From Acidobacteriota bacterium (GTDB taxonomy: Bacteria > Acidobacteriota > Terriglobia > Bryobacterales > Bryobacteraceae), in NCBI GenBank assembly GCA_016213775.1, contig JACQZR010000196.1, positions 1-56,218 on the forward strand: DNA of 56,218 bases, in the 5' to 3' direction. Each line of letters opens with the position of its first letter. The stretch's first letter is position 1. Shown in pieces: positions 10,020-36,290 of the stretch. The position numbers were made by a program, and so were the translations under genes. The notes beneath the pieces were generated by a model, which ran no database searches, was not told the DNA's origin, and saw only the letters and a list, made by a program, of their open reading frames with translations.

Positions 10020-10047
10020 GGATAACGCTTATCGGCGTTAGAGATGA
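10020..10047 (+). promoter_or_regulatory. Operator candidate at the first rrf2 start codon
   Basis: The block GGATAACGCTTATC (with a perfect GATAA/TTATC inverted repeat around CGC) continues into GGCGTTAGAGATGA and ends on the ATG of the first Rrf2 gene at 10044. A closely matching block recurs at 10634-10661 before the second Rrf2 gene (consensus GGAYAACRSTTATC then SGCGTTAGAKATGA). Placement on the translation start with no clear Shine-Dalgarno suggests an autoregulatory site, where bound Rrf2 protein would block transcription or initiation. Confidence 0.6.
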
Positions 10048-10511
10048 TTAATAAGACAACAGTTCTCGCTATTCGCGCCCTTATCCATCTTGGGCGCCAA
10101 ACCACCAAAGCCGTTCGCACCCCGCGGAGCATTGCAGAGGAGCTGGGGGAGTCTCCCACCTACCTGGCAAAGGTGACGCGGCAGCTTGTCAAGGCAGGGA
10201 TTCTCCGGGCGGAAAAAGGCGTTCGCGGAGGAGTGTATCTGGCGAAGCCACCGCTGGAGGTTTCGCTACTGGACATCGTCGAGGCCTGCCAGGGCGCGCT
10301 GACGGGAGACTACTGCCAGCAGGGCTGCCACAACCGCGTGGTGTGCTCCTATCACGCGGCGGCGGAGGAGTTGCTGAAGGCCACCGTGGGCGTGTTGTCG
10401 AAGTGGACGCTCGCCAAGCTGATGGAAAAACCAAGTTCTCCCAAGATGGCGCGGATAGCCGGGCTGGCCTGTCTGATGACCGGGGGCCAGGCGGCGTCGC
10501 GTCTGCAATAG
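10044..10511 (+). CDS. Rrf2-family Fe-S transcriptional regulator, copy 1
   Basis: 155 residues, normal for Rrf2. The N-terminus is a winged helix (INKTTVLAIRALIHLG, TPRSIAEELGESPTYLAKV) with the GGVYLAKPP wing. Four cysteines at residues 82, 91, 95 and 101 (pattern C-x8-C-x3-C-x5-C) match the region where Rrf2 members such as NsrR and IscR hold an iron-sulfur cluster, so it probably senses redox state, NO or oxygen. It heads the bc/molybdoenzyme cluster and has the shared operator on its start codon. No Shine-Dalgarno is evident, so the mRNA may be leaderless. Confidence 0.9.
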   Translation: MINKTTVLAIRALIHLGRQTTKAVRTPRSIAEELGESPTYLAKVTRQLVKAGILRAEKGVRGGVYLAKPPLEVSLLDIVEACQGALTGDYCQQGCHNRVVCSYHAAAEELLKATVGVLSKWTLAKLMEKPSSPKMARIAGLACLMTGGQAASRLQ

Positions 10512-10564
10512 CCGGTTGCGCGTATTGCCGCACTTGGGGCAAGGAAAGCGGCAAAGCGCGCATA

Positions 10565-10614
10565 TTGCGCTATTGAAGTAGCGCAAATGCGAGTCTAGCT
10601 GGGGTGGCCCCCAG
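10565..10614. repeat. Two hairpins between the rrf2 genes
   Basis: Bases 10565-10586 form an 8-bp inverted repeat (TTGCGCTA and TAGCGCAA, 6-base loop). Bases 10599-10614 form a 6-bp GC-rich stem (CTGGGG/CCCCAG, 4-base loop). Neither is followed by a run of T, so they are not typical intrinsic terminators. They may slow transcription or stabilise an mRNA end between the two regulator genes. Confidence 0.45.
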
Positions 10615-10626
10615 TTTGCATAGCGA

Positions 10627-10661
10627 CTAACGCGGACAACAGTTATCCGCGTTAGATATGA
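10627..10661 (+). promoter_or_regulatory. Operator candidate upstream of the second rrf2 gene
   Basis: A perfect 10-bp inverted repeat, CTAACGCGGA (10627-10636) and TCCGCGTTAG (10646-10655), with a 9-base spacer. The interval 10634-10661 matches the block at 10020-10047 at most positions. The pair of near-identical sites before two paralogous regulators is strong internal evidence for a shared regulator. Here the block ends on an ATG (10658) that opens a nine-codon reading frame ending in the ATGA that starts the second rrf2 gene. Confidence 0.62.
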
Positions 10662-10683
10662 AAGCAGAACCCGGCAGCAGGCG

Positions 10684-11118
10684 ATGATCAGCAAAACCAC
10701 CATACTCGCCATCCGCACGCTGATGCACCTGGCCCAGCAGCCGCCGCAGGCGGTGCTGACGCCGCGGAGTATCGCCGAGGCGCTCCACGAATCGCCGTCC
10801 TATCTTGCAAAAGTGACTCGCTTGCTGGTGAAGGCAGGGACATTGCGGGCTGAGAAGGGCGTGCACGGGGGCGTGCATTTGACGAGGCCGGCGGAGAAGG
10901 TGACGCTGCTCGAGATAGTGGAGGCCTGCGAAGGCGCCATTCTGGGAGGCTTCTGCGAGGAGGGCTGCGGCCGGCACCGAATCTGTTCGTACCACGTGTC
11001 GACGAAAGAGCTGCGTGCAGCGGTAGTAGGCGTGTATTCGCGCTGGACACTGGCGCGATTAATGGAGCGGCCGTGCGTGCACGCGGGAACAAGCGCTTGT
11101 CTGATGGCGGTTCAATGA
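10684..11118 (+). CDS. Rrf2-family Fe-S transcriptional regulator, copy 2
   Basis: 144 residues, clearly paralogous to the preceding gene (ISKTTILAIRTLMHLA, TPRSIAEALHESPSYLAKVT, LVKAGTLRAEKGVHGGVHL). Its four cysteines sit at the same residues (82, 91, 95, 101), so cluster binding is expected in both. The ATG at 10684 overlaps the TGA of a nine-codon leader frame (10658-10687), and its own stop overlaps the next start (ATGA at 11115). This copy is thus tied translationally to the electron-transport genes. A tandem duplication that kept the operator is the simplest explanation of the pair. Confidence 0.9.
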   Translation: MISKTTILAIRTLMHLAQQPPQAVLTPRSIAEALHESPSYLAKVTRLLVKAGTLRAEKGVHGGVHLTRPAEKVTLLEIVEACEGAILGGFCEEGCGRHRICSYHVSTKELRAAVVGVYSRWTLARLMERPCVHAGTSACLMAVQ

Positions 11119-13022
11119 GGCAGAACACGATGTTGCCGCTGAAAGTGGAAGTGCCGGGCGAGGGGTATCATGCGGGGTTGATCTCGTGCCAGGTGGCTTG
11201 CCCGGTGCATACGGACGCGCGCGGTTATGTGCGGGCGATTGCCGAAGGAAGGTTTGAAGAAGCGTATCTGATTGCGCGGGGGCCGAATCCCTTCGCCTCC
11301 ATCTGTGGGCGGATTTGCGGCGCGCCCTGCGAGGCGGCCTGCCGCCGGGGCAAGGTGCCGCGGGTGGATGATGACGGACACTTTGTAGCGGTGGATCGTC
11401 CGGTGGCGATCCGGGCATTGAAGCGCTTTGCCTGCGAGCAGGCCGGCCCGGAATCGGGTTGCGCTCCACCGGACCTGATCGCGAGCGTGGCCAACTTCGC
11501 CGGCGCTGTTTCGATGCAGTTGGAGGAGATGACCGGGCTGATGCGGGCCTCAGTGGATGGCCGCATTCAGAAGGGCGACGGGCAGCGCGTGGCCATCATC
11601 GGCGCGGGGCCGGCGGGGTTGTCGGCGGCGCACGATCTGGCGTTGCTGGGATTCCGTCCGGTGGTGTACGAAACGGAGCCGGTGGCCGCGGGAATGCTCG
11701 CGGTAGGCGTGCCTGCCTACCGGCTGCCGCGGGAAGTGATCCAGCGCGAGGTGGCGGTGATTGAAGCGCTCGGTGTCGAGATCAGGTGCGGATTCACGGT
11801 GGGCAAGGATATCTCGTTCCAGGAACTGCGCGCCACCCACGCCGCGGTGATTATCGCGGTAGGCGCGAAGGCGTCGCGAGGGTTGGGGTTGCCAGGCGAG
11901 AACGGTCCGCGCGTTCATGGTGGGGTGGACTTGTTGCGGGCGGTGGCTCTTGGCGAACACACCGACATTGGCCGAGAGGTTGTCGTGATCGGCGGCGGGA
12001 ACGTTGCTTACGACGTCGCGCGCACGGTAGTGAGGCAGATCGCATATGACACAGCGCGCACGGCGGCGCGGCTTTCCAAGACCGCGCGTGTGGTGCTGAC
12101 GTCGCTGGAAGGGCTGGAGGAAATGCCCGCCGATACGCTGGAGATTCTCGAAGGCGATGAGGAAGGCGTGCATCGCGAAAACGGTTGGGGGCCGCTGGCC
12201 ATCGAGCGCGGAACAAATGGGCTGCCGGTGGGTGTTCGCTTTCGCAGATGCCTGCGGGTGTATGACGAGAACCGCCGCTTTGCGCCGGTCTACGACGATG
12301 CGGACGTGCAGACGATTCCGTGCGATACGGTGCTGCTGGCGGTGGGACAAGCCCCGGCGCTGTCGTTTCTCGAAGCCGGCGGCGGAGATGTGGAGATGAT
12401 TCGGCCGGGGTGGCCGAAGTCAGACCCATCCACACTGGCCACCACTGCCAGTGGTGTGTTTGTGGCAGGGGATCTGGCGCACGGCACGCGGCTGTTGATT
12501 GACGCGGTGGCATCGGGCAAGAAGGCCGCGCGGTCGGTGTATCAGTATCTCACCGGGCGCACTTTGCGCAGTGAGATTACGTCGACTCACGCGGTGCTCG
12601 ACCGGTACAGGCGGGAGCGGGGCTACGAGAGCCTGCGCAGGCAGGCTGTTCCCGTGCGCGAGCCCGCTGAACGCATGGATCATCCCGATGTGCCGGTGGA
12701 ACTCGGCTACGACGCGGCACTGGCGATGAAGGAAGCCTCGCGGTGTCTGGACTGCGGCGTGACGCCGGTGTTCGATGGGAGCCGCTGCGTGCTCTGCGGC
12801 GGCTGCGCCGATGTCTGTCCAACGCAATGTCTGAAGCTGGTTTCGCTTGCCAGTCTCGAGTTTGATGTGGCACTGGACGGCGGCATTGACGTAGAGGATG
12901 ATTCGGCGATTTTGAAGGACGAGGAACGGTGCATCCGCTGCGCGTTGTGCGCGATGCGGTGTCCGGTGGAGGCGATCTCGATGGAGCGCGCGGTTACGCA
13001 AACGAATTGGAGGTCTGAATGA
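11115..13022 (+). CDS. GltD-like FAD/NAD(P) oxidoreductase with C-terminal 2x[4Fe-4S] ferredoxin domain
   Basis: About 635 residues from ATG 11115, preferred over 11073 because it makes an ATGA overlap with rrf2-2. The N-terminal Fe-S region has C25 and C29 (CQVACP) and C64, C68, C72, C76 ([13 protein letters not shown]), as in the glutamate synthase small subunit. FAD binding is at GAGPAG (163-168). An NAD(P)H motif follows at [13 protein letters not shown]. The C-terminus carries two ferredoxin motifs, [12 protein letters not shown] and [12 protein letters not shown]. The family moves electrons between NAD(P)H, FAD and Fe-S clusters. Within this cluster it could deliver NAD(P)H electrons towards the Rieske/cytochrome b module, though its partner is unknown. 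Cytoplasmic; no signal peptide. Confidence 0.88.
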
Positions 13023-13507
13023 CTGTCATTCCTGGAAGCCCGAAATCGAGGCTGGATCCGGACCCAATGCCGCGGCGGGACTGGCTGGGGTTGGCGTCGC
13101 TGTGGTCGGCGGCGTCAGCGCTGCTGTTCGGCCTTGTGGGTTCGATGCGATTGCCCAAGGCCGCGGTGGTGGCGGCGCCGTCCAAGACATTCAAAGTCAC
13201 ACTTCCGGATTCACTGGCGGCGGGTGAGGCCTTTGTGCCCGCGGGACGTGCCGTTGCCGTATACCGCGACGCAGAGGGCATCCACGCCATCTCCACCATC
13301 TGCACGCATCTCGGTTGCGTGGTGAAGTCGAATGCCGAGGGATTCGAATGCCCTTGTCACGGATCGCGATTCGACGCCACCGGCGGCGTGGTGAAAGGCC
13401 CGGCGCCGCGCGCGCTGGCATGGCTGCAGGTGAAGGTCAGCGGCAGTGAGATTCAGGTGGACGAGGGCAAGGCCGTCCCATCGGGGACGAAGGTGAAGAA
13501 CGCATGA
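13019..13507 (+). CDS. Rieske [2Fe-2S] protein of a bc-type complex
   Basis: 162 residues. One N-terminal membrane segment ([20 protein letters not shown]) is followed by a Rieske domain with both ligand boxes, CTHLGC and CPCHGSRF, each giving one Cys and one His to the cluster, and two further cysteines that can form the usual disulfide. It should accept electrons from quinol at the outer face of the membrane and pass them to a cytochrome c. The start overlaps the preceding stop (ATGA, 13019) and its stop overlaps the cytochrome b start (ATGA, 13504), so the redox core is tightly co-translated. Confidence 0.93.
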
Positions 13508-15051
13508 GCACTGAAGCCAAATCCGCGATGACGGAGTTCACCAGTAATCTGCGGAGCGTGCCGCGGCGGATGTTGGAGAGCGCGTTTCGTAGCGGCAAGC
13601 CGAACACGGACAGGACGCGATCGACGTTTGTGTTTAGCAACGTGTTTCTGCACCTTCATTCGGTGCGGACGCATCGCTGGTCACTGCGATGGACGACAAC
13701 GATGGGGTTGGGGCTGGCAACCACGGCTGCGTTTCTGATCACACTCTTCACGGGTGTGCTGCTGATGTTCTACTACAAGCCTTATCCGGATGTAGCGTAT
13801 CAGTCGATCAAGGACATCCACTTCGTCGTTCCCACCGGACGCTTTATGCGAAACATTCACCGCTGGGCGGCGAACGTGATGGTGGTGACCGTGATTCTAC
13901 ATATGGCGCGCGCGTTCTACACGGCATCCTACCGGCGTCCCCGCGAGTTCAACTGGCTTGTGGGGATGGGTCTGCTGGCGATTACGCTCGGGCTCTCGTT
14001 CACTGGCTATCTTCTGCCGTGGGATCAGCTTGCTTACTGGGCGATCACGATTGGAGCGAACATTGCGCAATCGCCGCGCGAGGTGACCGATGCTCTGAAC
14101 CTGACGGATTACTTCGATCCCGGCGGCTTCCAACGGTCGTTGCTGTTGGGATCGGAGATTGTGGGAGAGGAAGCACTCATCCGCTTTTATCTGCTGCACG
14201 TGATGATTCTGCCGCTGGCGCTGGTGGCGTTGATGACCATCCACTTCTGGCGCATTCGCAAAGACGGCGGCATTGCCCGGCCGGCTGATGCGGACGCGCG
14301 GTTGGAGGCTCCGGCCGGCGCCGTGTATCCGGTGTTCACGCAAGCGCCGCAGAAGACGTATCAACTGGCGGCGATCGTGAAGGGCCGCACGTCGGCGGTG
14401 GAGCGTGGACCGGAGAACACGGTGCCGTCCATGCCGCACCTGTTCTACGCGGAACTGGCGATCCTGATGCTGACAGCGCTGGTCTGTGTCGCGCTTTCAT
14501 TGGTCTCGGATGCGCCATTGAAGGAACTGGCGAATCCCAGCGTGCCTGAGAATCCCGCGAAAGCTCCGTGGTACTTCCTCGGCCTGCAAGAGCTGGTCGC
14601 CTTTTCGGCATTCATGGGAGGCATCGGTGTTCCGTCGGTGGTGCTGATCGGGTTGGGATTGATTCCCTACCTGGACCGCGAGAAGGCGGGGACAGGCGAG
14701 TGGTTTGGCGGGCCGGGCGGCGCGCGGTTGGTGCGTCGTTCGCTGATGGTAGGCTTCGGAGCCTCGATATTGATTGAAGCCTTTGTGATCCGCTTCGGAT
14801 GGATCCGCGAGTGGTTCCCGCATGTTCCACAACTGGTGGTGACCGCGTTGAACCCGGGTACGCTGCTGACGTTGGTGTACGGGCTCTACTCAGTGTGGCT
14901 GGTGAAGCGGTATCAATCCACCCGCGCCGGAGCGCTTGGATTGTTTACCTGTTTTCTCTGCGGCTTTCTGGTGCTGACTGTGATCGGCACCTACTTCCGC
15001 GGACCAAACTGGGACTTCTATTGGTCGCCTTCGCTGTGGCCGCATCACTAA
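13504..15051 (+). CDS. Cytochrome b of a bc-type quinol:cytochrome c oxidoreductase
   Basis: 515 residues in one chain covering both the cytochrome-b6-like and subunit-IV-like parts. Haem b ligands are visible as paired histidines 14 and 15 residues apart: [16 protein letters not shown], and [31 protein letters not shown] is the conserved segment after helix C. The Qo-site PEWY motif is replaced by APWYF in [11 protein letters not shown], a variant I recall from several bacterial, probably menaquinol-using bc complexes. Many hydrophobic segments confirm an inner-membrane protein. Together with the Rieske protein and the multihaem cytochrome c it makes a complete quinol-oxidising module. Confidence 0.93.
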
Positions 15052-15060
15052 GAGGACGCG

Positions 15061-16711
15061 ATGAACAGGAACAAGATTCTCTTACTGGCATCGAGCATCG
15101 GCGTGTTGGCGCTGCTTGCCGCCGCGGCGATCAATGAGAACTTTCTCAAAGACTGGCGGCGAATTCAATCGGTTGGACACAGCCCCGATGGCGCCATCAA
15201 CGTGCAACTGCGGCAGGTGGTGAATCCAGGGTTGCGTACAGCAGACCGCTGCACTTCGTGCCATGTCAGCATGGGACCCGGCGAGCAGGAAGTGACCGGG
15301 CACGCGCTTTTCAGGAAGCATCCGGCGGTGGTTCACGATCCGGCGCAGTATGGGTGCACGATCTGTCACGGGGGACAAGGCTCGGCGACGGAAAAGGCGG
15401 ATGCGCATGGCGACGTCCATTTCTGGCCGGAGCCGATGATTCCGTTAAAGAGCGCGCAGGCCGGCTGCGGAACGTGCCACATTGCGTTGCACGTGCCCAA
15501 GGCGGATCAGCTTCGCGCGGCGCAGGCTGTGTTTGAACGGCTGGATTGCCGGGCCTGCCATCGCGTGGACGGAAAGGGCGGGACGATTCGTCCTGACGGC
15601 GGCGGGATGGAGGGGACTGACCTGACACGCTCCGGCGTTTCCGGCTACGACATGGGCTGGTATGCAAAGCATGTGGAGAAGAGCGCGAAGGCGGCGAGCG
15701 GACCGTGGAAGACGTCGTGGGCTGCTGTCAACGATGAGGATCTGGCGGCGGTGGCGGTGTTTCTCGCATCGCGCAACGGCGCGCCGAAACTGATGGAGGC
15801 GAAGGCGACCTTTTTCAGTTATGGTTGCCTTGGATGCCATCGGGTGAGTGGCGTGGGCGGCGACGAAGGGCCGGATCTTACACGCGCGGGGGAAAAGGAC
15901 CCGGGCCAGGCTGACTTCAGCAACGTTCCCGAAGAGCGCGGCCTCAACCACTGGATCGCTGAGCATTTTCGTGCTCCGGTGGCGCTGGTGACAGGGTCGA
16001 AGATGCCGGCGGTTGCAGCGCCGGAGTCCGACATCGCGCAACTGACGACGTTCGTGCTTTCGCTGCGCAGACGCGAACTGCCGGGCATCTACTCTCCGAA
16101 GGACCGGCTGGAGGCCGTGCGCTTTGGCAAGCGTGAGTTCGCCGGTGACGGAGCCACTCTCTTTGGAGCATTCTGCGCCGGTTGCCACGGGCAGGACGGT
16201 ATGGGGCGTACGGCGGGCGATGAGACGTTTCCCGCGATCGCGAATGCGGAGTTTCAAAAGCTGGCTTCGGACCGTTTTCTTACGGAGACGATTGCGAAGG
16301 GGCGGCCGGGAAGACGCATGCCCGGCTGGAACAAGGATGGCGGGCTGCGGCCGGATGAGGTCGCGGCGATAGTGAGGCACCTGCGCGTGTTGAGCGGCGT
16401 AGAAGCGCGTGCCGCAGAGGACGAGTGGAAGGCGTCGCGGGATTTGCGTCCGGCGGGCCGGCGATTATACGCGGCCTCTTGCGGCGGATGTCATGGGGCG
16501 GATGGGCAGGGCAACAAGGGTCCCGCTCTGGCGAATGCCGTGCTGTTGGATGTGGCCACGGACGGCTATCTGCGCGACACGATCACGAAAGGACGGCCGG
16601 GCAGCATCATGCCGGCGTTTGGCGAGCCCTCGCCCACGCATCGCACGCTGGCGGCGGCGGATGTGGAAGCGGTAGTGGCGTATATCAGGTCCTGGCAGGA
16701 GAAAACGAAAA

Positions 16712-16728
<17 letters not shown>
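15061..16728 (+). CDS. Membrane-anchored seven-haem cytochrome c
   Basis: 555 residues with an N-terminal hydrophobic anchor (about 6-23) and seven CxxCH haem sites starting at residues 64 (CTSCH), 99 (CTICH), 136 (CGTCH), 163 (CRACH), 256 (CLGCH), 372 (CAGCH) and 474 (CGGCH). The first four lie close together like a small tetrahaem domain. The last three resemble separate class-I cytochrome c domains with downstream methionines (GSKMPAV, GRRMPGW, SIMPAF) as likely axial ligands. It should face the periplasm and carry electrons between the Rieske/cytochrome b complex and the molybdoenzyme. It overlaps the molybdoenzyme gene by 17 bases. Confidence 0.92.
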
Positions 16729-20158
<3,430 letters not shown>

Positions 20159-20170
20159 AGGAGAACTGCG

Positions 20171-21298
20171 ATGGCACGCGTAATGAACTGGCAACTGGGA
20201 CGCGAGATGTCCTACTGGTACCCCGAGAGCAGGCCGAACAAGCAGTTCGCCGCGGTCTTTGATACCAACAAATGCATTGCCTGCCAGACGTGCACCCTGG
20301 CATGCAAGACGACGTGGACTTCGGGCCGCGGCCAGGAGTACATGTTGTGGAACAACGTGGAGTCGAAGCCCTATGGGTTCTATCCGCTGGCTTGGGATTT
20401 GAAGCTGCTGGAGTCTCTGGAAGGCGGCAAGTGGACCGGCCGCAAGTATGAGGGGCAGACGATTTTCGAGCAGGCGCCGGCGGGGGAACGCGTCCTGGGG
20501 TGGCGTCCCGAATCGCAGGATTACGCCTATCCGAACGTCGGCGAGGACGATTGCACAGGGCAGATAGACGGCGGCGCGAGCATGGCTATGCCGCACATGA
20601 ACTGGTTCTTCTACCTGGCGCGCATCTGCAACCATTGCACGTATCCGGCGTGTCTGGCATCGTGCCCGCGCGGGTCGATCTATAAACGGCCTGAAGACGG
20701 AATCGTACTCGTCGATCAGGGGCGCTGCCGCGGCTATCAGGAATGCGTGAAGGGATGCCCGTACAAGAAGATCTTCTTCAACCCGATGACGGGTACTTCC
20801 GAGAAATGCATTGCCTGCTTCCCGAAGGTCGAGCAGGGGATTCAGCCGCAATGTTTTGTCAATTGCATCGGGAAGATACGGCTCGCCGGGTGGATTTCCA
20901 AGCCGGAGAATGCGAAGCCGGAGAACCCGATCGACTACCTGGTGCACGTCAAGAAGATTGCACTGCCGCTCTTTCCGCAGTTCGGGCTGGAACCCAACGT
21001 TTACTACATACCGCCTGTGCACGTACCCACTTCGTTTACCCGGCAGATGTTCGGACCCGGAGTGGACGATGCGATCAAGGCATACCGGAATGCGAAGAAC
21101 GACCCGGACCTGGCTTCGCTGTTGTGCCTGTTCGGGTCGAGTGAAATGGTGATGCCGCGATGGAAACGCCAAGGCGATACGGTGAGCGGGTTGGACGAGA
21201 AGGGCAACACGCTGGTGAAGGTGCCGATGAACGAGCCGGTGCACGTGCGGGCGGCTTACGACAAGCTGTACCAAATCTCGCGCACCAATTGTCCGTAG
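20171..21298 (+). CDS. NarH/NxrB-type four-cluster iron-sulfur subunit
   Basis: 375 residues with ligands for four clusters: C35, C38, C41, C45 ([11 protein letters not shown]); C153, C156, C161, C165 ([13 protein letters not shown]); C186, C192, C196 with Tyr189 in place of a fourth Cys ([11 protein letters not shown]), expected to bind [3Fe-4S] as in NarH; and C213, C216, C228, C232. The N-terminal [29 protein letters not shown] and [10 protein letters not shown] resemble what I recall of nitrite-oxidoreductase and periplasmic nitrate-reductase beta subunits. It lacks a leader and would be exported with the Tat-bearing alpha subunit. It relays electrons between alpha and the gamma or haem proteins. 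Confidence 0.92.
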
Positions 21299-21321
21299 GC
21301 GCTCATGAGGAGATAGACGTT

Positions 21322-22173
21322 ATGTTGCGATTCAGAATATTGGCCGCGGCGCTGATGATTGTGGCGGCGGGATGCAGCCGGGCGCCGCAGGCAGTGAATG
21401 AAGTGGTGAGTCTGCGAGTGTCGAAAATACCGGACACGCCGCCGGACGCGGTTTGGAGTAATGCACCCGAGCACACCGCGAAACTGCTGCTGCAGGACCT
21501 GGTGGAGCCCCGTCTCGCCAAGGCTTCGACGCCGGAGGTGAAAGTACGGTCCGTGACCAACGGGTCGGAGATCGCGTTCCGGCTGACGTGGCCGGATGCG
21601 GTGGTGAACGACGTCCCGGAGCCGGGGCGATTTCCGGATGGCTGCGCGGTGCAGATTCCGCGCGTGCGGGAGGTGGATCCGCCCGAGCCGCAAATGGGGC
21701 AATCCAGCAGGCCCGTGGACATCACGTTCTGGCGCGCGGACTGGCAGGCTTCGGTGAACGGACGGCCTGACAATATCCGGTCCATCTATCCCAACGCCGC
21801 GGTGGACCACTACCCGTTCGAGGCGAAATCACTGGAGCCCGGATCGGCTGCGCAACGGGAGATGGCGACACGCTATTCTCCGGCGGCCGCCTCCGGCAAC
21901 AGGCGCGCCGGCCCGCGTGATGTACCCGTGGAGGACCTGGTGGCGGAAGGTCCGGGAACGCTGTCGCCGCGTCCCGGCGCAGGGTCGCGCGGCAAAGGCG
22001 AACACGGTGCCGCTGGATGGTCGGTTGTCATTGTGCGCAAGTCGCCTCAAGGTCTCGATGTGAGGACGCGGACGCAGATTGCATTCGCCGTCTGGGAAGG
22101 GTCGAAGCAGGAGACGGGGGCGCGCAAGATGCGAACGGGTTGGATTCCACTTTCGGTGCGGGAGGCCAAATGA
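21322..22173 (+). CDS. Putative lipoprotein gamma subunit, ethylbenzene-dehydrogenase-gamma-like haem b domain
   Basis: About 283 residues from ATG 21322, which has GAGGAGAT upstream. The N-terminus MLRFRILAAALMIVAAGC is a lipoprotein signal with the lipid-modified Cys at residue 18. The body (VWSNAPEHTAKLLLQDLVEP, NGSEIAFRLTWPDAVVND, VDITFWRADWQ, WSVVIVRKSPQ) has the beta-rich layout of gamma subunits of ethylbenzene dehydrogenase, selenate reductase and NxrC, which bind haem b. Residues about 175-235 are rich in Pro, Gly and Arg and look like a flexible insertion. I cannot identify the axial ligands. Position between beta and the chaperone supports the gamma assignment. Confidence 0.72.
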   Translation: MLRFRILAAALMIVAAGCSRAPQAVNEVVSLRVSKIPDTPPDAVWSNAPEHTAKLLLQDLVEPRLAKASTPEVKVRSVTNGSEIAFRLTWPDAVVNDVPEPGRFPDGCAVQIPRVREVDPPEPQMGQSSRPVDITFWRADWQASVNGRPDNIRSIYPNAAVDHYPFEAKSLEPGSAAQREMATRYSPAAASGNRRAGPRDVPVEDLVAEGPGTLSPRPGAGSRGKGEHGAAGWSVVIVRKSPQGLDVRTRTQIAFAVWEGSKQETGARKMRTGWIPLSVREAK

Positions 22174-22820
22174 CAGCGCTCGATCAACCGGTGACGGACC
22201 TGTTGCGGCAAGCAGCCGACTGGCGTTTGATCGGTCTGTTGCTGGAGTGTCCCCGCGATGGCTGGCGCGAGAAAGTCATTGCGCTATCGGCCGAGGTGAC
22301 TGACGAGAATCTGCGGCGGGCTGCTTCGCAGGCGTTGGAAGAGGCAAGCGAAGGGCTCTATCATTCCACGTTTGGCCCAGGCGGGCCTGCCCCACCGCGC
22401 GAGGCGACTCATCGCGACACGGTGCAACTGGGATACCTGATGAGCGAGCTCGATGCGTTCTATTCGGCCTTCGGCTATCAGGCCAGTACCGCCGAGCCTC
22501 CGGATCACATCAGTGTGGAGGCCGGCTTCGTGGCGTATCTCAAATTCAAAGAGGCGTATGCGATCAGTTGCGGCGACGAGGACGGCGCCGCGGTATCTCG
22601 CGACGCCTGCCACGAGTTCGTGAGCGAGCATCTGGCGTCCACCGCCGGTCCGCTGACTGAACTGCTGGGAACTTGCGAAGTACCGTATCTGGAATTGCTG
22701 GCCATCCCACTGCGGCAGCGCTCGGGCGAGGCCAAGAAGCGGTTCGTCGTGCTGAGTCCTGGGGACATCGAAGGGCGTGACGAGGAGTTTGGGTGTTTGC
22801 CGGAGGTGAAGTTCGATTAA
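22170..22820 (+). CDS. TorD/DmsD-type molybdoenzyme chaperone
   Basis: About 216 residues from ATG 22170, which overlaps the previous stop (ATGA). Mostly alpha-helical, with the TorD-family stretch EPPDHISVEAGFVAYL in the middle and a Y-x2-TFGPGG segment earlier. These cytosolic chaperones bind the Tat leader of the molybdoenzyme and hold the apo-protein for cofactor insertion before export. The expected client is the catalytic subunit at 16712-20158. It is the last gene of the plus-strand cluster and ends with a 4-base overlap with the convergent mreD. Confidence 0.87.
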   Translation: MTALDQPVTDLLRQAADWRLIGLLLECPRDGWREKVIALSAEVTDENLRRAASQALEEASEGLYHSTFGPGGPAPPREATHRDTVQLGYLMSELDAFYSAFGYQASTAEPPDHISVEAGFVAYLKFKEAYAISCGDEDGAAVSRDACHEFVSEHLASTAGPLTELLGTCEVPYLELLAIPLRQRSGEAKKRFVVLSPGDIEGRDEEFGCLPEVKFD

Positions 22821-30974: not shown

Positions 30975-33900
30975 TTAGCGCGAAAAGTAGCCCGTAATCT
31001 CCAGCGCCACATGAGTAGTCCCCGCCACCTTGATATTGATGCTCCCGCTGGTTGACCCCGGGACGATCGCGGAATTGGACACCGTCTGCCCCTGGAACGC
31101 GTTGAGCTGCGAGACGCCCGGCCACACCACTCCCGCGGGCCACATACTCAGGAACGGCATTCCCTGACCACCGGGCGTGGCCGTCGCGTTGATGGCCCAT
31201 GCTTGCGGACCGGTGGGCAGTCCTGGGCAGCGCGTCGACGCCGGCAGTGTCACCGTACGGTCGGTCCCCGGTGTCATCACAGGGCCGCCGAATGCGCCCG
31301 TGAACGAGGTGTCCTGCGTGTTGAGAAACCGGCACTGCGGTACGGGGTAGAAGGACAATCCGCGGCCGGTGCCATCGTCGGGAGCGAAGTAGCCGTTCAC
31401 ATCCAGAATGAGGTTGGTGGCATCGTAAGCGAAAACGTTGATGCTGCCGTCGGAGACGCGCGCGGGCACGATGGCACTGTTCGCCAGCGCATAGCCGAAG
31501 ACAGAGTTCGTGTTCGAGATCACCGGCTGCGTCTGGCCCGTGGGCCACGCCGTGACGTAAGCTACCGGAGCGCCGTCGGTGAGTTCACCGGGCGCGAGCG
31601 TCATCTGCAGCGAATACGCATTGGCCGCCGGTATCTGGCAGTTGGCGGTGCGAATCGGAGAGCCGGGAATGCGGAAGGTCCGCGTCTCCGACCTGTTCAT
31701 CCGCTGATTGCCGTAGGGCTGTGGAAGCTGGGAGTATATGGGCCCGCGCGTGTCCACCGCGCGGCACGGCCCAATGGGGTAGTAGAGCAGGCCGCCTGAA
31801 TTCGCATCATCGGTGAAGTAGCCGAAGATGTCCAGCGCGAGGTTGGTGCTGTTGCTGCTGTAGACGCTGATCGACCCGCCCGTGCCGGCACGCACGATGG
31901 CCGTGTTGGCGATGTAGCCCCCCGTCGTTGTCGCTAGTGTGCGGAATTCGGGGCGGGCCTCGCCGGTGGGCCACAACGTGAGCGTGTCCACGGGGCCGGT
32001 CGCGTTGATCAACGTGTCGAGCGTGGCGTTCAACACGAACGCCTTGGCACTTGCCGGGATGGCGCAGTTGGGCGATGCTGTGACGGGAATAGTCCGCACC
32101 GCGCCGGCGGCGAGCGATGGCGGGCCGTAGTTCCCGCTCCACGTGGTTCCGGCATACTGCGCGCGCGTTTCCAGAATGCGGCACGGCGTCATGGGTACAA
32201 AGCGCATGGCGGTGGGCGTGAATGGCGGCGCTGTCGTGCCTTGCGTCGCGCTGAGCACAAGCTGCCCGGCGCCCGAGATGTTCCAGGCGCTGGCTTCGAT
32301 GTAATAAGTCTGCCCTTGGATCACCGGAATCGTGATCTGCGATCGCGGCGTCGTCGTCCAATTGGCGCTGCATGCCAGCTCCGTAGCTGCCGACGGCGTC
32401 CCGGAATAGGCGCTGAGCACGGTGTAGTAATCGCTCCCCTGGGCGTTGATGTTGAGCGTGCCAGTGTAGCTTGCGGTATAGATGTACCACGCTGTGGCCG
32501 AATCCGTGCGCCCGGTGGTGCAGGAGTGAACCGGATCGCCGGCGTTGATGGTCGCCTGGAGTGTGCTCACGCTCGAAGTGAAGGGCAGAGAAGAAATCCG
32601 GGTGGCGGTGGAAGGCTCATCATTGGTGAAGGCGCTCGACTGGTTGGCCGCGCTCACGTTCAACACCATCAGTCCCCCGTTTCCAGGCGTGAAATCGTCG
32701 TACTCGCTCACTTCGATGTAATACGTCTGGCCCGCGGTGACAGAGACCGCGGCGGCGGAGCTGTACGTGGCGCCGTTAGCGTCGTCGCTGCAGGCCACTT
32801 CGTTCGCTTGCGACACGTTGGTGCGATAGACGCTGAGGACGGTGTCGTATTCGCTGCCGTACGTGTTCACATTCAGGGTGCCCGTGAAAGTGGGGACTAC
32901 TCTGAACCAGACGGTGCGCAGGCCCTTGAAATTGGATTCGCAACTGTGGCCTGGATCGGTGGCGCTGGCGGTGGCGCGGGTGATGTCCTGCTGGATGGTA
33001 TACGGCAGCGAGGGGATTGCGACGGCGGTAGAGATTTCATCATTGGGCACGGCGATGCCCGTGGCCAGGACGTTGAGCATGAGCGTTCCACCCGCACTCG
33101 CTTGGTACGACGAGACCTGGATCCAATACGTCTGCCCGGAGGTGACCGTCACCGAGGTGTCGGATTGGTAGCTGAGGCTGTTGCCGTCGTCATTGCAGCG
33201 CAGTTCATTGCCGGCGCTCGCGAAGCCGCCGTAGATGGCGAGCACGGTGTCGTAACTGCTGCCGATGGTGTTGACACGCAGCGTGCCGCTGAAGTTGGAA
33301 ACATAGCGGAACCAGACAGTGTGGCCGTCCTGGCTGGAGGTGCAACTGTGAATGGGATCGAGGTTATTGGTGGTGGCCGAAGCTGTGGATTGGGTGGCGT
33401 TGTAGGGCAGGCTGGAGATGACGGCGGCGGTGTTGGATTCATCATTGTTGCTGACAACTGTGGCTTGTGAACGGACATTCAGGAATGCGTTTCCGCCGAT
33501 GGCTGAATCGCCAACCGCGCTCACCTGAATGTAGAGCTGCTGGCCCATGGTGACGACAACCGTGACGGCGCTGTTGACCGTGGACTGATCGGGAGGATCG
33601 TCGTTGCAGGCCATTTCCCTGGTGTCGGCGACGAGGCCGTCGTAGACGCTGAGGACAGTGTCGTAGTCACTGCCGTAGGTGTCGATGCGCAGGGCTCCGG
33701 GGGAAGTGACGAAATAGCGGTACCAAACCGATTTCGTATCCTTGGCGCTGGTGCAGGCATGCACCGGATCGGCGATGCCCTGCGTTGCTCCCAGTGTTGC
33801 CTGAGACACCGAGTAGGGAATACCCGTGATCGTCACCGCCCCCGCGGGTTCGTCGTTGACGACGCCGCCGGTGGGTGCGGCAAAGCTGGCGGTGACGGTG

Positions 33901-36290
33901 CGCGCGGCGGTCATGGCGACGCTCTGCGGATTGACCGAGCCAGCGAGGCTGGCGCTCCATGAGGAGAAGGAAAAGCCACCGTTGGGAACGGCGCGCAACA
34001 ACACCGATGTATTGGAATTGAAGTAGCCATCGGGAGAAGTTGGCGTTGCCGTGATGGATCCGGCGCCGGCGGGGTTCACGGTGGTTGTCAATAGATATTG
34101 CGTGGTATAGCCGGCGGTGAACGCGGCTCCGGCGGACGCGGTCACAGTGTGGCTCTGTGCGCCGCCGTCACTCCAGTTGGCGTAGACGTAGCGGATCCCG
34201 CCGGAGCCTTGCGAAGTTGGCGCGCTCACGCTGTGCGTTGTGCCGTTGGTCCAGTTGAAGGACTGCGGCGCGGTGTATGTTGTGCCGTCGACAACGATGC
34301 TGAGCCCGGGCGGATTGGAGGTGACGGTGTTGGACGACAGCGTGCGGAAGTTGGCGGTCACCGTGCGCGGAACGCCCATGCTGGTGCTGACCGGCGATGT
34401 CGTTCCGCTGGCGTCTCCTGTCCAGTTGTTCAGCGCGAAGCCGGCGGACGGCATGGCCGTGAGCTGCACCAGTGCTCCGCTCGCGTAGTAGCCGTCGGCG
34501 GAGGCCGGGTTGGCTGTCACCGTGCCGCCACCCGCGGGGGTGACGCTGGTGGTCAACTGGAACTGCGTGTTGAAGGTGGCTGTGAAGGTGGCTGCCGCCG
34601 CGGGCGTCACGATGTTGTGAGTCTGCGCGCCGTTGTCACTCCAACCAGCGTAGACATAGCGCGTCCCACTCGATCCCTGCGTCGAAGGGACTGTGACGGA
34701 ATGACTGCCGCCGGCCGTCCAGTTGGAAAACAGTTTGGGCGCCGTGTATGTGGCCCCGTCGACCATAACGTTCAGGCCTGGAGGGTTGGTGGTGATGGTG
34801 ACGGGCACGGCGTTCGGCGTGGTTGCTCCGGTGGCAAAAACTTTGACGCACACGTTGCCGGTGGAGTAACGGGTAGTGAGGTCCGTCCAGGTGCTTCCGT
34901 TGGAGCTGATGTAGCTCTGGCCGGCCCGCGAGGACGCCCGGCTGCTGTAGTTCGGAATGGCGTACTCGATCGGGATCGGATAATTGAAACCCGGGGTCTG
35001 CAACTGCACCACCACCGAGAAATTGCTGCCCGAAGTTACGTTGACTGGCGCAGCCAGGCGGATTGTGTGGTAGCCGGCCGTCGCAGAAGTGCCGGTGGTA
35101 GTGCCGGCGAGCACGCCGTTGGAAGGGTTGCCCTGTACGTTGGTGTAGATGCGGATGGTATACGGTGACGCCGGCGATCCGACGTAGAAACTCACTGCGC
35201 TCACCGCCTCGCTGGCCGATGCCGCGAAAACGTTCGCGAACCATGCCGTGTTGCTTGAGTAGCCGTAGCTGCTCACCCATCCAAGATCATCGTATTGATA
35301 AGCCCGGGTGAAATTGGTGGCGTCCTCGGTACCGGCGAACGCCCACATATCTGAAGTACGGCCGAAAGCGGAATCATAATAGGAAACGTAGAAATAGCCG
35401 TTGTCCCCCCAATTGCCGCCCCAACTGTTGCGGACGATGAAGGCGCCGTTCGCCTGGGGCGGCACGTTGAACTTGTTGCGGTCGAAGTTGTCGTCCCACC
35501 CCACGATGGCAACGGCATGATTGATGGACTTGTTGCCGGAATAATAGTACGACTTGTTGGTGCTGTTGTAGTAATTCACGTCGTCCATCATCATGTGGAC
35601 ATAAATGGCGCCGTATTGCATTACCGCGTCTTTCCAGCCATCGTTATCCGTGGAATTGGCGCGGCGAGGGACAAGGACGGCATCCTGCAGGTGGCGCGCG
35701 ATCTGCACGGTGGCGGGCGAAGTGTTAGCGTCCACGGCCTGATAGGGATCTTCCGATTCCTTGACGATACCGGACCAGCGGGCGGCATAAGCCATGGCCA
35801 TATGGGCATTGCCGCCATCGCAAGGGGTCCAGTCGAAGCCGGCCGTATTCTTCATGTGATTCTCGGAGAAATCATTCACCGACCCCGGCAACAGCGCGGA
35901 CTCGGTTGATCCCATGACTGCGAATGCCCAGCAACTGCCGCAATTGCCCTGATTGCGAATAGCGGGGAGCCGTCCGAGACCGCGTAGATCGTATGTGGGT
36001 GGCAGGGTGATGCCGGGAACGCGCGGCGGAGCGCCCAACCGGCGTAGATGGCTCATATCGGACGGGGTTGGAATCAGGCCGAGCGGCTGGCCCGAACCGG
36101 TTCGCTTGTCATAGCCACCGGCTGCATACAACGCTTTAAAACTGCGGAAAGCCGGGCTCCACGGAGCTTCACTACCTTTGGGCTCGGACGCGGCTTCATC
36201 CGTTTGCGCCATTCCTACGATGGCGAGTCCGATCGCCCCCAGCACGACGACAATCGGGACAACATAATACGACAGCCGGTTTCGGGACAT
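30975..36290 (-). CDS. Giant secreted papain-like (C1A) cysteine protease with repeat domains
   Basis: 1771 residues. An N-terminal hydrophobic segment (VVPIVVVLGAIGLAIVG) serves as signal or anchor. The C1A protease domain (about 95-310) has Gln114 and nucleophile Cys120 in QGNCGSCWAF, His258 in INHAVAIVGW and Asn288 in VRNSWGGNWG, so it should be active. A lectin-like beta domain (about 310-495) follows, then two copies of an InlB-type repeat unit (GYYASGALVQLTA, GYFNSNTSVLLRA). Four pre-peptidase-like beta domains come next, each with an NDE start, a W(F/Y) core and GSxYxTVLS. Three C-terminal repeats (PCRxxxTR, ending GYF) resemble a domain known in actinobacterial secreted proteins. It probably digests or binds extracellular polymers. 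Confidence 0.9.
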   Translation of the reverse strand: MSRNRLSYYVVPIVVVLGAIGLAIVGMAQTDEAASEPKGSEAPWSPAFRSFKALYAAGGYDKRTGSGQPLGLIPTPSDMSHLRRLGAPPRVPGITLPPTYDLRGLGRLPAIRNQGNCGSCWAFAVMGSTESALLPGSVNDFSENHMKNTAGFDWTPCDGGNAHMAMAYAARWSGIVKESEDPYQAVDANTSPATVQIARHLQDAVLVPRRANSTDNDGWKDAVMQYGAIYVHMMMDDVNYYNSTNKSYYYSGNKSINHAVAIVGWDDNFDRNKFNVPPQANGAFIVRNSWGGNWGDNGYFYVSYYDSAFGRTSDMWAFAGTEDATNFTRAYQYDDLGWVSSYGYSSNTAWFANVFAASASEAVSAVSFYVGSPASPYTIRIYTNVQGNPSNGVLAGTTTGTSATAGYHTIRLAAPVNVTSGSNFSVVVQLQTPGFNYPIPIEYAIPNYSSRASSRAGQSYISSNGSTWTDLTTRYSTGNVCVKVFATGATTPNAVPVTITTNPPGLNVMVDGATYTAPKLFSNWTAGGSHSVTVPSTQGSSGTRYVYAGWSDNGAQTHNIVTPAAAATFTATFNTQFQLTTSVTPAGGGTVTANPASADGYYASGALVQLTAMPSAGFALNNWTGDASGTTSPVSTSMGVPRTVTANFRTLSSNTVTSNPPGLSIVVDGTTYTAPQSFNWTNGTTHSVSAPTSQGSGGIRYVYANWSDGGAQSHTVTASAGAAFTAGYTTQYLLTTTVNPAGAGSITATPTSPDGYFNSNTSVLLRAVPNGGFSFSSWSASLAGSVNPQSVAMTAARTVTASFAAPTGGVVNDEPAGAVTITGIPYSVSQATLGATQGIADPVHACTSAKDTKSVWYRYFVTSPGALRIDTYGSDYDTVLSVYDGLVADTREMACNDDPPDQSTVNSAVTVVVTMGQQLYIQVSAVGDSAIGGNAFLNVRSQATVVSNNDESNTAAVISSLPYNATQSTASATTNNLDPIHSCTSSQDGHTVWFRYVSNFSGTLRVNTIGSSYDTVLAIYGGFASAGNELRCNDDGNSLSYQSDTSVTVTSGQTYWIQVSSYQASAGGTLMLNVLATGIAVPNDEISTAVAIPSLPYTIQQDITRATASATDPGHSCESNFKGLRTVWFRVVPTFTGTLNVNTYGSEYDTVLSVYRTNVSQANEVACSDDANGATYSSAAAVSVTAGQTYYIEVSEYDDFTPGNGGLMVLNVSAANQSSAFTNDEPSTATRISSLPFTSSVSTLQATINAGDPVHSCTTGRTDSATAWYIYTASYTGTLNINAQGSDYYTVLSAYSGTPSAATELACSANWTTTPRSQITIPVIQGQTYYIEASAWNISGAGQLVLSATQGTTAPPFTPTAMRFVPMTPCRILETRAQYAGTTWSGNYGPPSLAAGAVRTIPVTASPNCAIPASAKAFVLNATLDTLINATGPVDTLTLWPTGEARPEFRTLATTTGGYIANTAIVRAGTGGSISVYSSNSTNLALDIFGYFTDDANSGGLLYYPIGPCRAVDTRGPIYSQLPQPYGNQRMNRSETRTFRIPGSPIRTANCQIPAANAYSLQMTLAPGELTDGAPVAYVTAWPTGQTQPVISNTNSVFGYALANSAIVPARVSDGSINVFAYDATNLILDVNGYFAPDDGTGRGLSFYPVPQCRFLNTQDTSFTGAFGGPVMTPGTDRTVTLPASTRCPGLPTGPQAWAINATATPGGQGMPFLSMWPAGVVWPGVSQLNAFQGQTVSNSAIVPGSTSGSINIKVAGTTHVALEITGYFSR

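What the first reader, a model, noticed from the sequence alone, without database searches (positions are those of the whole stretch)
10020..22820. Self-contained Rrf2-controlled chain: bc complex, seven-haem cytochrome and periplasmic NarG/NxrA-type enzyme
In one coupled operon run I see two Fe-S regulators, a ferredoxin-tailed GltD-like flavoprotein, Rieske, cytochrome b, heptahaem cytochrome c, Tat-exported molybdoenzyme alpha and beta, a candidate gamma lipoprotein and a TorD chaperone, with no NarI. Haloarchaeal nar loci couple a Rieske/cytochrome b pair to a periplasmic NarGH, so the principle is known; the flavoprotein, heptahaem and twin Rrf2 combination I do not recognise as described. 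It may support nitrate or another oxyanion respiration, or nitrite oxidation in reverse.
Basis: partly seen in the sequence, partly recalled or inferred. Interest (0 to 1): 0.85.

Follow-up and report, generated by a model that had tools for sequence, protein, structure and literature searches.

The report
NAD(P)H-linked bc complex driving nitrate reduction
A conserved bacterial operon joins a cytochrome bc-type complex, an NAD(P)-type flavoprotein and a periplasmic nitrate/nitrite molybdoenzyme, and it belongs to a family of such operons in which the same electron module sits beside different respiratory enzymes.

Summary
Ten genes run from 10044 to 22820: two Rrf2 regulators, GltD/Nfn-type Fe-S flavoprotein (F), Rieske (R), cytochrome b, seven-haem cytochrome c, Mo alpha, beta, EB_dh lipoprotein gamma, TorD. 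Twin Rrf2 is not a defining trait; the order F-R-b-c-alpha-beta-gamma-TorD is: complete in 47 of 48 relatives with enough flank. Alpha aligns full length with Kuenenia NxrA (38.7%) but lies in a separate clade. The front end resembles NAD(P)-linked Rieske/cytb complexes of anammox bacteria (PMC12954380). F-R-b-multihaem-c modules also stand beside NosZ, cbb3 oxidase or a PcrA-like enzyme, so the module looks like an interchangeable front end for terminal reductases. That, nrfA in 20 of 29 carriers against 8 of 29 others, and neither narG nor napA in 25 of 29 carriers favour nitrate reduction over nitrite oxidation. Against: the window's own genome has narG, and nrfA linkage is rare (1 of 120 loci). 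NAD(P)+ reduction by bifurcated quinol oxidation is the most interesting, unproven step. New variant of a known kind.

The parts
10020..10034 (.). Putative Rrf2 operator A, inverted repeat GGATAW-N3-WTATCC (1 mismatch)
   Evidence: At <=2 mismatches within about 80 bases upstream of 20 of 30 Rrf2 genes of this operon type (the window's two included); base-shuffled controls mean 0.29, maximum 4. The motif was read by eye from the same sequences, so the test is not independent
10044..10511 (+). Rrf2-family regulator A with a Cys cluster
   Evidence: PF02082, 91.5 bits; TIGR00738 over cut-off
10634..10648 (.). Putative Rrf2 operator B, same motif (1 mismatch), inside a longer inverted repeat
   Evidence: sequence printed
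10684..11118 (+). Rrf2-family regulator B; stop overlaps the flavoprotein start by 4 bp
   Evidence: PF02082, 86.5 bits; TIGR00738 just over cut-off
11115..13022 (+). Fe-S flavoprotein (F): N-terminal Fer4_20, GltD/NfnL-type FAD/NAD(P) domain, C-terminal ferredoxin domain; no hydrophobic segment, so probably cytoplasmic
   Evidence: Pfam; Nfn/GltD/DPD-type PDB matches; 6 N-terminal and 8 C-terminal cluster-type Cys kept in at least 93% of 56 rows (numbering from 11073); hydropathy
13019..13507 (+). Rieske protein, RR motif plus one hydrophobic anchor; Ser116/Phe118 pair in CPCHGSRFD
   Evidence: PF00355; best PDB match 9rk4, a Kuenenia Rieske entry; conservation
13504..15051 (+). Cytochrome b, b6 and subunit-IV parts fused (515 aa); His pairs 119/133 and 232/247; conserved N-terminal His50, 52, 57; APWYFLGLQ-type motif in place of PEWY
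   Evidence: PF13631/PF00033; b6 structures match best; conservation
15061..16728 (+). Membrane-anchored seven-haem cytochrome c with C-terminal CcoP-like part
   Evidence: 7 CXXCH; 66 of 68 orthologues have 7; Pfam and NCBIfam; anchor
16712..20158 (+). Mo alpha subunit, NxrA/NarG-type, RR (Tat) signal; FS0 ligands Cys66, Asp70, Cys74, Cys114; Asn69; Mo ligand Asp273
   Evidence: 7b04_B 837 bits full length; residues set against PMC8387239
20171..21298 (+). Beta subunit, multi-cluster Fe-S protein
   Evidence: 7b04_A 375 bits; 16 conserved Cys
21322..22173 (+). Gamma subunit, EB_dh haem b lipoprotein; lipobox Cys18, haem ligand candidates Met125 and Lys269
   Evidence: PF09459; 7b04_C 71 bits; conservation
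22170..22820 (+). TorD/NarJ-type chaperone
   Evidence: PF02613; TIGR03482 below cut-off

Best explanation
A dedicated respiratory operon for nitrate built on a Rieske/cytochrome b complex that is also wired to NAD(P). Quinol is oxidised at the periplasmic side of the cytochrome b. One electron goes through the Rieske cluster, the seven-haem cytochrome, the gamma haem b and the beta Fe-S chain to the Mo site of alpha, which reduces nitrate to nitrite in the periplasm. The other goes through the b haems to the cytoplasmic Fe-S flavoprotein, which reduces NAD(P)+, so that nitrate reduction pays for NAD(P)H (quinone-based bifurcation, as proposed for anammox R/b complexes). TorD matures alpha; Rrf2 Fe-S regulators on a GGATAW-N3-WTATCC operator gate expression where present; in many carriers NrfA takes nitrite on to ammonium. 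Shown by sequence: parts, ligands, order, conservation, module sharing. Inferred: complex formation, direction, substrate, NAD(P) reduction. Rough odds: one electron chain 0.85; nitrate reduction as main direction 0.7; bifurcating NAD(P)H formation 0.4.
For: Alpha, beta and gamma each match Kuenenia NXR subunits best among solved structures, with the FS0 3Cys/Asp, substrate Asn, Mo Asp and Met/Lys haem ligands kept. Eight-gene order in 47 of 48 loci. F-R-b-c modules stand beside other terminal reductases: of 58 loci picked from the list below the window tier, 18 NosZ, 18 cbb3, 3 PcrA-like, 1 NxrA-like, 10 with an eight-haem cytochrome and no partner found, 8 with none found (examples named). 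A four-haem NrfH-like ORF and nrfA follow TorD in G275; nrfA lies about 3 kb past TorD on the other strand in G026. nrfA in 20 of 29 carriers against 8 of 29 non-carriers (Fisher p 0.0035; kinship not corrected). narG or napA in only 4 of 29 carriers. The Rieske protein is nearest a Kuenenia R/b Rieske and has the Ser/Phe pair of Kustd1480, measured at +335 mV. F has conserved Cys enough for about four clusters, as in the anammox models.
Against: The window's own genome also has a classical narG (1477 bits, over cut-off). nrfA next to the operon is rare: 1 of 120 loci scanned plus G026. 9 of 29 carriers show no nrfA, and 3 of the 20 nrfA matches, the window's own among them, have a stop inside. 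Kuenenia NXR works in both directions, and the Nitrotoga NXR is about as far from Kuenenia NxrA as the window's alpha. No conserved Cys for a covalent haem cN, which the anammox models have. Sister alphas at 55-60% showed no FRbc in the stretches held, so the enzyme can exist without it. 18 of the 58 F loci have no recognised partner. Nothing here measures potentials, NAD(P) binding or activity.
Confidence: 0.55

Rival explanations
1. Same enzyme chain, but no bifurcation: the flavoprotein is an electron entry that feeds NAD(P)H electrons into cytochrome b or the quinone pool, giving an NAD(P)H/quinol:nitrate chain with an ordinary Q cycle.
For: The flavoprotein is in the GltD/NfnL/DPD family, whose members are known to work in either direction (general knowledge); no haem cN Cys.
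Against: PMC12954380 argues that feeding NAD(P)H into the quinone pool would lose energy that NADH dehydrogenases could save. Not tested here.
Confidence: 0.3
2. Nitrite oxidation: alpha works as an NXR, passing electrons through gamma and the seven-haem cytochrome to an oxidase, with Rieske/cytb and flavoprotein run in reverse to make NAD(P)H.
For: Alpha aligns full length with Kuenenia NxrA; Nitrotoga shows that an enzyme about 40% identical to it can oxidise nitrite; the own genome has a cbb3 operon with the same kind of module.
Against: Alpha lies outside the clade of Kuenenia NxrA; recognised partners of sibling modules are NosZ, cbb3 and a PcrA-like enzyme; nrfA association.
Confidence: 0.15
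3. The substrate is another oxyanion (chlorate, perchlorate, selenate and the like).
For: Type II DMSO reductases are broad (general knowledge); alpha scores far below the curated cut-offs of TIGR03479 (294 of 985) and narG (134 of 1084).
Against: Alpha is much nearer NXR (837 bits) than PcrA (180); a PcrA-like enzyme has its own separate operon; Asn69 and Asp70 match the NXR active-site surroundings.
Confidence: 0.08

Closest known systems
Kuenenia stuttgartiensis Rieske/cytochrome b complexes R/b-2 (Kustd1480-1485) and R/b-3 (Kuste4569-4574)
   Same: Rieske, b6-type cytochrome b with subunit IV, multihaem cytochrome c and an NAD(P) oxidoreductase in one cluster (PMC12954380). In two genomes whose NxrA is 85-86% identical to Kuenenia's, homologues stand in the orders R-b-F-b-c8h and R-F-b-b-c6h, the latter beside an eight-haem ORF in one of them. 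The window Rieske is nearest 9rk4
   Different: There the partner is an HAO-like octahaem protein or unnamed; here an NXR/NAR-type molybdoenzyme. Gene order differs, cytochrome b is fused, no conserved cN Cys, F 35-41% identical at the Rieske-linked loci
Periplasmic-type NXR of Kuenenia (NXR-ABC, 7b04)
   Same: Full-length alpha and beta homology, gamma homology, FS0 3Cys/Asp, haem b Met/Lys, RR signal in alpha
   Different: 38.7% identity, separate clade, linked to a Rieske/cytb operon, beta lacks an 8-residue and longer insertions
Periplasmic NAR/NXR lineage of Nitrotoga and Hydrogenobacter (PMC6050957, passages and NXR section)
   Same: Nitrotoga and Hydrogenobaculum alphas are about 40% identical to Kuenenia NxrA, as here; haem gamma without a transmembrane helix; beta without an 8-residue insertion, which also fits
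Haloarchaeal nar operon (Haloferax larsenii, L213)
   Same: Rieske and cytochrome b beside alpha, beta, EB_dh gamma and TorD
   Different: No feature named as flavoprotein or multihaem cytochrome among the eleven in the stretch; alpha 25% identical
Wolinella clade II nos system with a Rieske/cytochrome bc complex
   Same: By its title, a Rieske/cytochrome bc complex supplying N2O respiration (seen in a reference list)
   Different: Paper not read; gene make-up not compared

Membership tests
Periplasmic NXR proper (Nitrospira/Nitrospina/anammox) | Alpha inside the clade with Kuenenia NxrA | tested here: not met
   38.7% to Kuenenia NxrA, against 54-86% for the 22 sampled rows of that clade (L171, L191-L210, L199x); window clade of 46 rows apart, support 100, quick method, midpoint root. 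Nitrospira and Nitrospina sequences were not on the tree
Periplasmic NXR proper (Nitrospira/Nitrospina/anammox) | FS0 by 3 Cys + Asp, Asn and Mo Asp in alpha; Met/Lys haem b in gamma | tested here: met
   Cys66, Asn69, Asp70, Cys74, Cys114, Asp273; Met125, Lys269 against PMC8387239; FS0 motif found in 78 of 80 alphas
Periplasmic NXR proper (Nitrospira/Nitrospina/anammox) | Oxidises nitrite | not testable with these tools
   needs assay
Nitrotoga/Hydrogenobacter-type NAR/NXR lineage | Alpha inside that clade | tested here: inconclusive
Cytoplasmic NarGHI | NarG over the TIGR01580 cut-off, NarI present, cytoplasmic | tested here: not met
   133.6 of 1084 bits, RR signal, no NarI in the run
NCBIfam type II DMSO reductase alpha (TIGR03479) | Curated cut-off 984.75 bits | tested here: not met
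   294 bits; the PcrA-like alpha of L224 scores 1179
Anammox-type NAD(P)-linked Rieske/cytb complex | Rieske, cytochrome b/SUIV, multihaem c and NAD(P) oxidoreductase homologue in one cluster | tested here: met
Anammox-type NAD(P)-linked Rieske/cytb complex | Covalent haem cN | tested here: not met
   Only C328 and C483 of cytochrome b are conserved Cys, none near the first helices
Anammox-type NAD(P)-linked Rieske/cytb complex | His pair for the predicted interface haem b | tested here: inconclusive
   His50, 52, 57 conserved; not aligned with the Kuenenia protein
Anammox-type NAD(P)-linked Rieske/cytb complex | Reduces NAD(P)+ by bifurcation | not testable with these tools
   a proposal in anammox too
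Haloarchaeal pNar | Alpha near haloarchaeal NarG, Rieske/cytb adjacent | tested here: not met
   Rieske/cytb adjacent, but alpha only 25-28% to L213 and L140. L139 (Natronococcus, 48%) is nearer, but no Rieske/cytb was found in its stretch

The most novel reading that the evidence does not exclude
A family of bifurcating, NAD(P)+-reducing Rieske/cytochrome b complexes exists outside anammox, in Acidobacteriota, Planctomycetota and others, with interchangeable terminal enzymes (nitrate, nitrous oxide, oxygen, PcrA-type). Each operon lets a high-potential acceptor pay for NAD(P)H made from quinol, and the window is the nitrate-driven member.
Probability: 0.38. Interest if true: 0.88.

Novelty: new variant of a known kind. 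Interest (0 to 1): 0.72.

Why it matters
For the anammox R/b complexes NAD(P)H formation by bifurcation has been proposed, and for Kustd1480-1485 no driving reaction has been named (PMC12954380). Here homologous modules are genetically tied to recognisable acceptor enzymes in other phyla, so the proposal can be tested outside anammox bacteria; the 80 relatives listed are all MAGs, so a culture would first have to be found or the genes expressed elsewhere. It also offers many Acidobacteriota a candidate nitrate reductase that narG and napA models miss: neither model hit in 25 of 29 carriers. And because these alphas resemble NxrA, annotation by similarity alone could label such organisms nitrite oxidisers.

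Tried and rejected
Canonical NarGHI and haloarchaeal pNar labels were rejected on score, signal, identity and missing NarI. NXR proper was rejected as a clade label, not as a possible activity. Nitrite reduction to NO was looked for in 58 genomes: NirK over cut-off in 0, with two carriers (G028, G333) below it; NirS in 1, G028 (that search rang in none of its 14 control genomes). nosZ and norB were not searched for in these 58. Promoter and terminator scans gave nothing above chance. Recurrent flanking genes look, by eye on sequence starts only, like Ric-type repair proteins (12 loci), CRP/FNR regulators (10) and MoaA (7); none was confirmed by a family search. The partner of the eight-haem class was not found: one locus examined has a porin-like ORF below its cut-off and cytochrome bd nearby. 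The plasmid search gave 4 of 234 matching records covering 80% of alpha; the best, in Natronococcus, is 48.7% identical. Nitrotoga, Hydrogenobacter and Nitrospira alphas could not be fetched. No structure prediction was run. Dropped before the alpha tree: L189 (two pieces) and L211, shorter than 850 aa; the tree used 75 of 128 alphas, 29 of them from the 80 loci, listed by hand. L134 and L138 were left out of the distance correlation. The 29 carriers are 29 of the 32 genomes of the window clade (G323, G351 and G082 left out); the 29 non-carriers were spaced handle numbers chosen by me, not matched by family. In some searches only the first 9 or 13 candidates per genome were scored where there were more, so a miss is possible.

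Full report
WHAT IS THERE. The window is contig C114 of a 10.96 Mb assembly; the nearest alphas on the tree are from MAGs labelled Acidobacteria. Ten + strand genes lie at 10044-22820: Rrf2a, Rrf2b, flavoprotein F, Rieske, cytochrome b, seven-haem cytochrome c, alpha, beta, gamma, TorD. With corrected starts, genes from Rrf2b to TorD overlap by up to 17 bp or are at most 23 bp apart; Rrf2a and Rrf2b are 172 bp apart. An inverted repeat GGATAW-N3-WTATCC lies before each Rrf2 gene, at 10020-10034 and 10634-10648, one mismatch each. Within about 80 bases upstream, 20 of 30 Rrf2 genes of such operons (the window's two included) have it at two mismatches or fewer; base-shuffled controls averaged 0.29, maximum 4. 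The motif was read from the same sequences, so this shows conservation, not an independent test. I take it as an autoregulatory operator (inference).

THE ENZYME. Alpha (1148 aa) matches Kuenenia NxrA (7b04_B) full length at 837 bits; next are PcrA 180, EbdA 144 and NarG 118 bits. Identity to Kuenenia NxrA is 38.7% over 1163 columns. Beta and gamma also match 7b04 best. Ligands reported for Kuenenia NXR (PMC8387239, passages) are kept: FS0 by three Cys and Asp70, Asn69, Mo Asp273, Met125/Lys269 for haem b. C-x2-N-D-x3-C was found in 78 of 80 alphas. The tree of 75 rows (SH-aLRT only, quick method, midpoint root) puts the window clade, 46 rows including a long-branched Natronococcus sequence, apart (support 100) from Kuenenia NxrA and 25 others (support 97). 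The Nitrotoga paper (PMC6050957, passages and its NXR section) describes a sister lineage of NXR proper holding a proven NXR and a characterised periplasmic NAR (Hydrogenobacter). The window clade may belong there; I could not fetch those sequences.

DISTRIBUTION AND ORDER. In Acidobacteriota 51 of 396 genomes have an alpha relative: 32 at 57% or more (the window included) and 19 at 40-44%. In Planctomycetota (phylum of G398) 86 of 392 match. A scan of the named genome collection gave 152 relatives, 80 kept; all 80 titles are MAGs, mostly labelled Acidobacteria or its subgroups, with planctomycete, deltaproteobacterial and one verrucomicrobial label; submitters' labels may be wrong, for instance two 'Acidimicrobiia'. 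Of the 80, 48 have at least 6.5 kb upstream and 3 kb downstream of alpha; 47 show F-R-b-c-A-B-G-D in order, L127 lacks FRbc. Rrf2 stands directly before F in 24 of 54 loci. Sister alphas at 55-60% (L058, L175-L184) have beta and mostly gamma and TorD, with no FRbc in the stretches held, some of them short. L185-L188, on the Kuenenia side of the tree (53-55% to Kuenenia NxrA), have G-A-B-D followed by Rieske and cytochrome b, with a multihaem c seen in three of four. So Rieske/cytb linkage of NXR/NAR enzymes seems to have arisen more than once, the haloarchaeal one being another case.

THE FRONT END. F is a Fer4_20/GltD/ferredoxin protein with Nfn/GltD/DPD relatives and conserved Cys enough for about four clusters. 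The Rieske protein is closest in the PDB to 9rk4. Hauser et al. 2025 (PMC12954380; parts 1, 4, 5 and 6 of 7 read) describe the Kuenenia complexes: Rieske, b6-type cytochrome b, subunit IV, hexa- or octahaem cytochrome c and an NAD(P) oxidoreductase with four modelled Fe-S clusters, Rieske potentials of +303 and +335 mV, and a proposal that bifurcated quinol oxidation makes NAD(P)H. The window Rieske has the Ser/Phe pair of Kustd1480. In nine genomes with NxrA 41-43% identical to the window's alpha, F matches at 34-41%. Two were looked at (NxrA 85-86% identical to Kuenenia's): in each, two of three F loci lie beside Rieske, cytochrome b and multihaem genes, in the orders R-b-F-b-c8h and R-F-b-b-c6h. 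Differences here: fused cytochrome b, no conserved Cys for haem cN.

MODULE SHARING. A search for F in 396 Acidobacteriota genomes found matches in 118. I fetched 58 loci below the window-type tier (42-57% identity, taken down the ranked list, not at random and not all). Beside F and those of R, b and multihaem c that the stretch held, the partner was: NosZ 18, cbb3 oxidase 18, PcrA-like Mo enzyme 3, NxrA-like 1, an eight-haem cytochrome with no recognised partner 10, none found 8, some of these at contig ends. Partners were assigned by similarity to four example sets; the examples were named by NCBIfam: NosZ TIGR04246 905 bits (over cut-off), PcrA-like alpha TIGR03479 1179 bits (over) and PcrA structures 980-984 bits, CcoN, CcoO and CcoG best but below cut-off. 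The own genome has the cbb3 version on C271 (L228). On a tree of 85 F proteins (quick method), window-type F groups with PcrA-linked F (100), then with cbb3-linked F (99); NosZ-linked F lie apart. Five NxrA-linked rows (L134, L138, L172, L173, L265; L138 and L265 are the same sequence) fall with another module type, so the NxrA label needs 4 changes, gains or losses. The same alpha family thus stands beside two lineages of the module. All recognised partners are terminal reductases, the main argument for nitrate reduction.

GENOME CONTEXT. In 29 carriers and 29 non-carriers of the phylum: NrfA 20 and 8 (Fisher p 0.0035, kinship not corrected; a stop lies inside the match in 3 of the 20, the window's genome included, and in 3 of the 8); NarG 2 and 2; NapA 3 and 2; NirK over cut-off 0 and 0; NirS 1 and 0. 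Neither NarG nor NapA in 25 of 29 carriers, of which 18 have NrfA. In G275 a four-haem NrfH-like ORF and NrfA follow TorD on the same strand (about 1.4 kb separates beta from gamma there); in G026 NrfA lies about 3 kb past TorD on the other strand. Such linkage is rare: 1 of 120 loci scanned, the same G275 place. Against the reading too: the window's genome has narG at C49 (1477 bits).

MECHANISM. See Best explanation. Bifurcation is energetically thinkable with menaquinol (recalled, about -70 mV), NAD(P) (-320 mV) and nitrate/nitrite (+420 mV). It is not shown here, and remains a proposal in anammox.

NOVELTY. Searches of the held open-access library did not show this operon; I saw listings and abstract starts, passages of PMC8387239, PMC6050957, PMC8301774, PMC11409646, PMC6037941 and PMC8862662, and the parts of PMC12954380 named above. 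Ten Brink 2013, Kartal 2013 and de Almeida 2016 were seen only as references; Dibrova 2013 is not held. 'Not described' is limited to that.

Noticed in passing
L233, L235, L239, L240, L251, L253, L255, L258, L261-L263, L266, L268, L269, L272, L273, L276, L280: An F-Rieske-cytb-five-haem cytochrome module stands beside clade II-type nosZ in Acidobacteriota (18 of the 58 F loci fetched).
   Followed up: partly
L228 (own genome C271) and L229, L230, L234, L236, L237, L242-L250, L252, L256, L281: The module with a cbb3 oxidase, mostly in the order R-b-c7h-CcoN-CcoO-x-F; in L228 a CcoG-like ORF and an ORF that looks like a metal P-type ATPase by its start follow F.
   Followed up: partly
L224, L225, L226: F-R-b-six-haem c beside a PcrA-like type II Mo enzyme with beta and gamma; a TorD-type ORF was named in L224.
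   Followed up: partly
L238, L254, L259, L260, L267, L270, L271, L275, L277, L279: F-R-b-b with an eight-haem cytochrome and no recognised terminal partner.
   Followed up: partly
L191-L200: Ten acidobacterial alphas 57-69% identical to Kuenenia NxrA, of 19 genomes with 40-44% matches to the window: possible unrecognised nitrite oxidisers.
   Followed up: partly
L185-L188: Planctomycetal alphas on the Kuenenia side with gamma-alpha-beta-TorD followed by Rieske/cytb genes.
   Followed up: partly
L171, L172 (G538 C92): One planctomycete contig carries both an NXR-proper-type cluster and a window-type operon, alphas about 12 kb apart.
   Followed up: no
L139 (Natronococcus occultus plasmid, 12001-15374): A 48.7% identical alpha without listed gene, matched in two pieces, with beta and TorD and no Rieske/cytb found nearby.
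   Followed up: partly
L008 (own genome C50): Formate dehydrogenase N alpha (TIGR01553 over cut-off) whose wider match holds an in-frame TGA, possibly selenocysteine.
   Followed up: no
G333 C68 and C110: napA-type genes on the same contigs as a window-type alpha (C68) and as an F-nosZ module (C110).
   Followed up: no
window 30975-36290 (-): 1771-residue papain-type protease with lectin-like and InlB-type repeat domains.
   Followed up: no
window 17585-19537 (-) and 20099-21274 (-): Long antisense ORFs opposite alpha and beta; the second has lower third-position GC (0.54) than the operon genes; both look like shadows.
   Followed up: no
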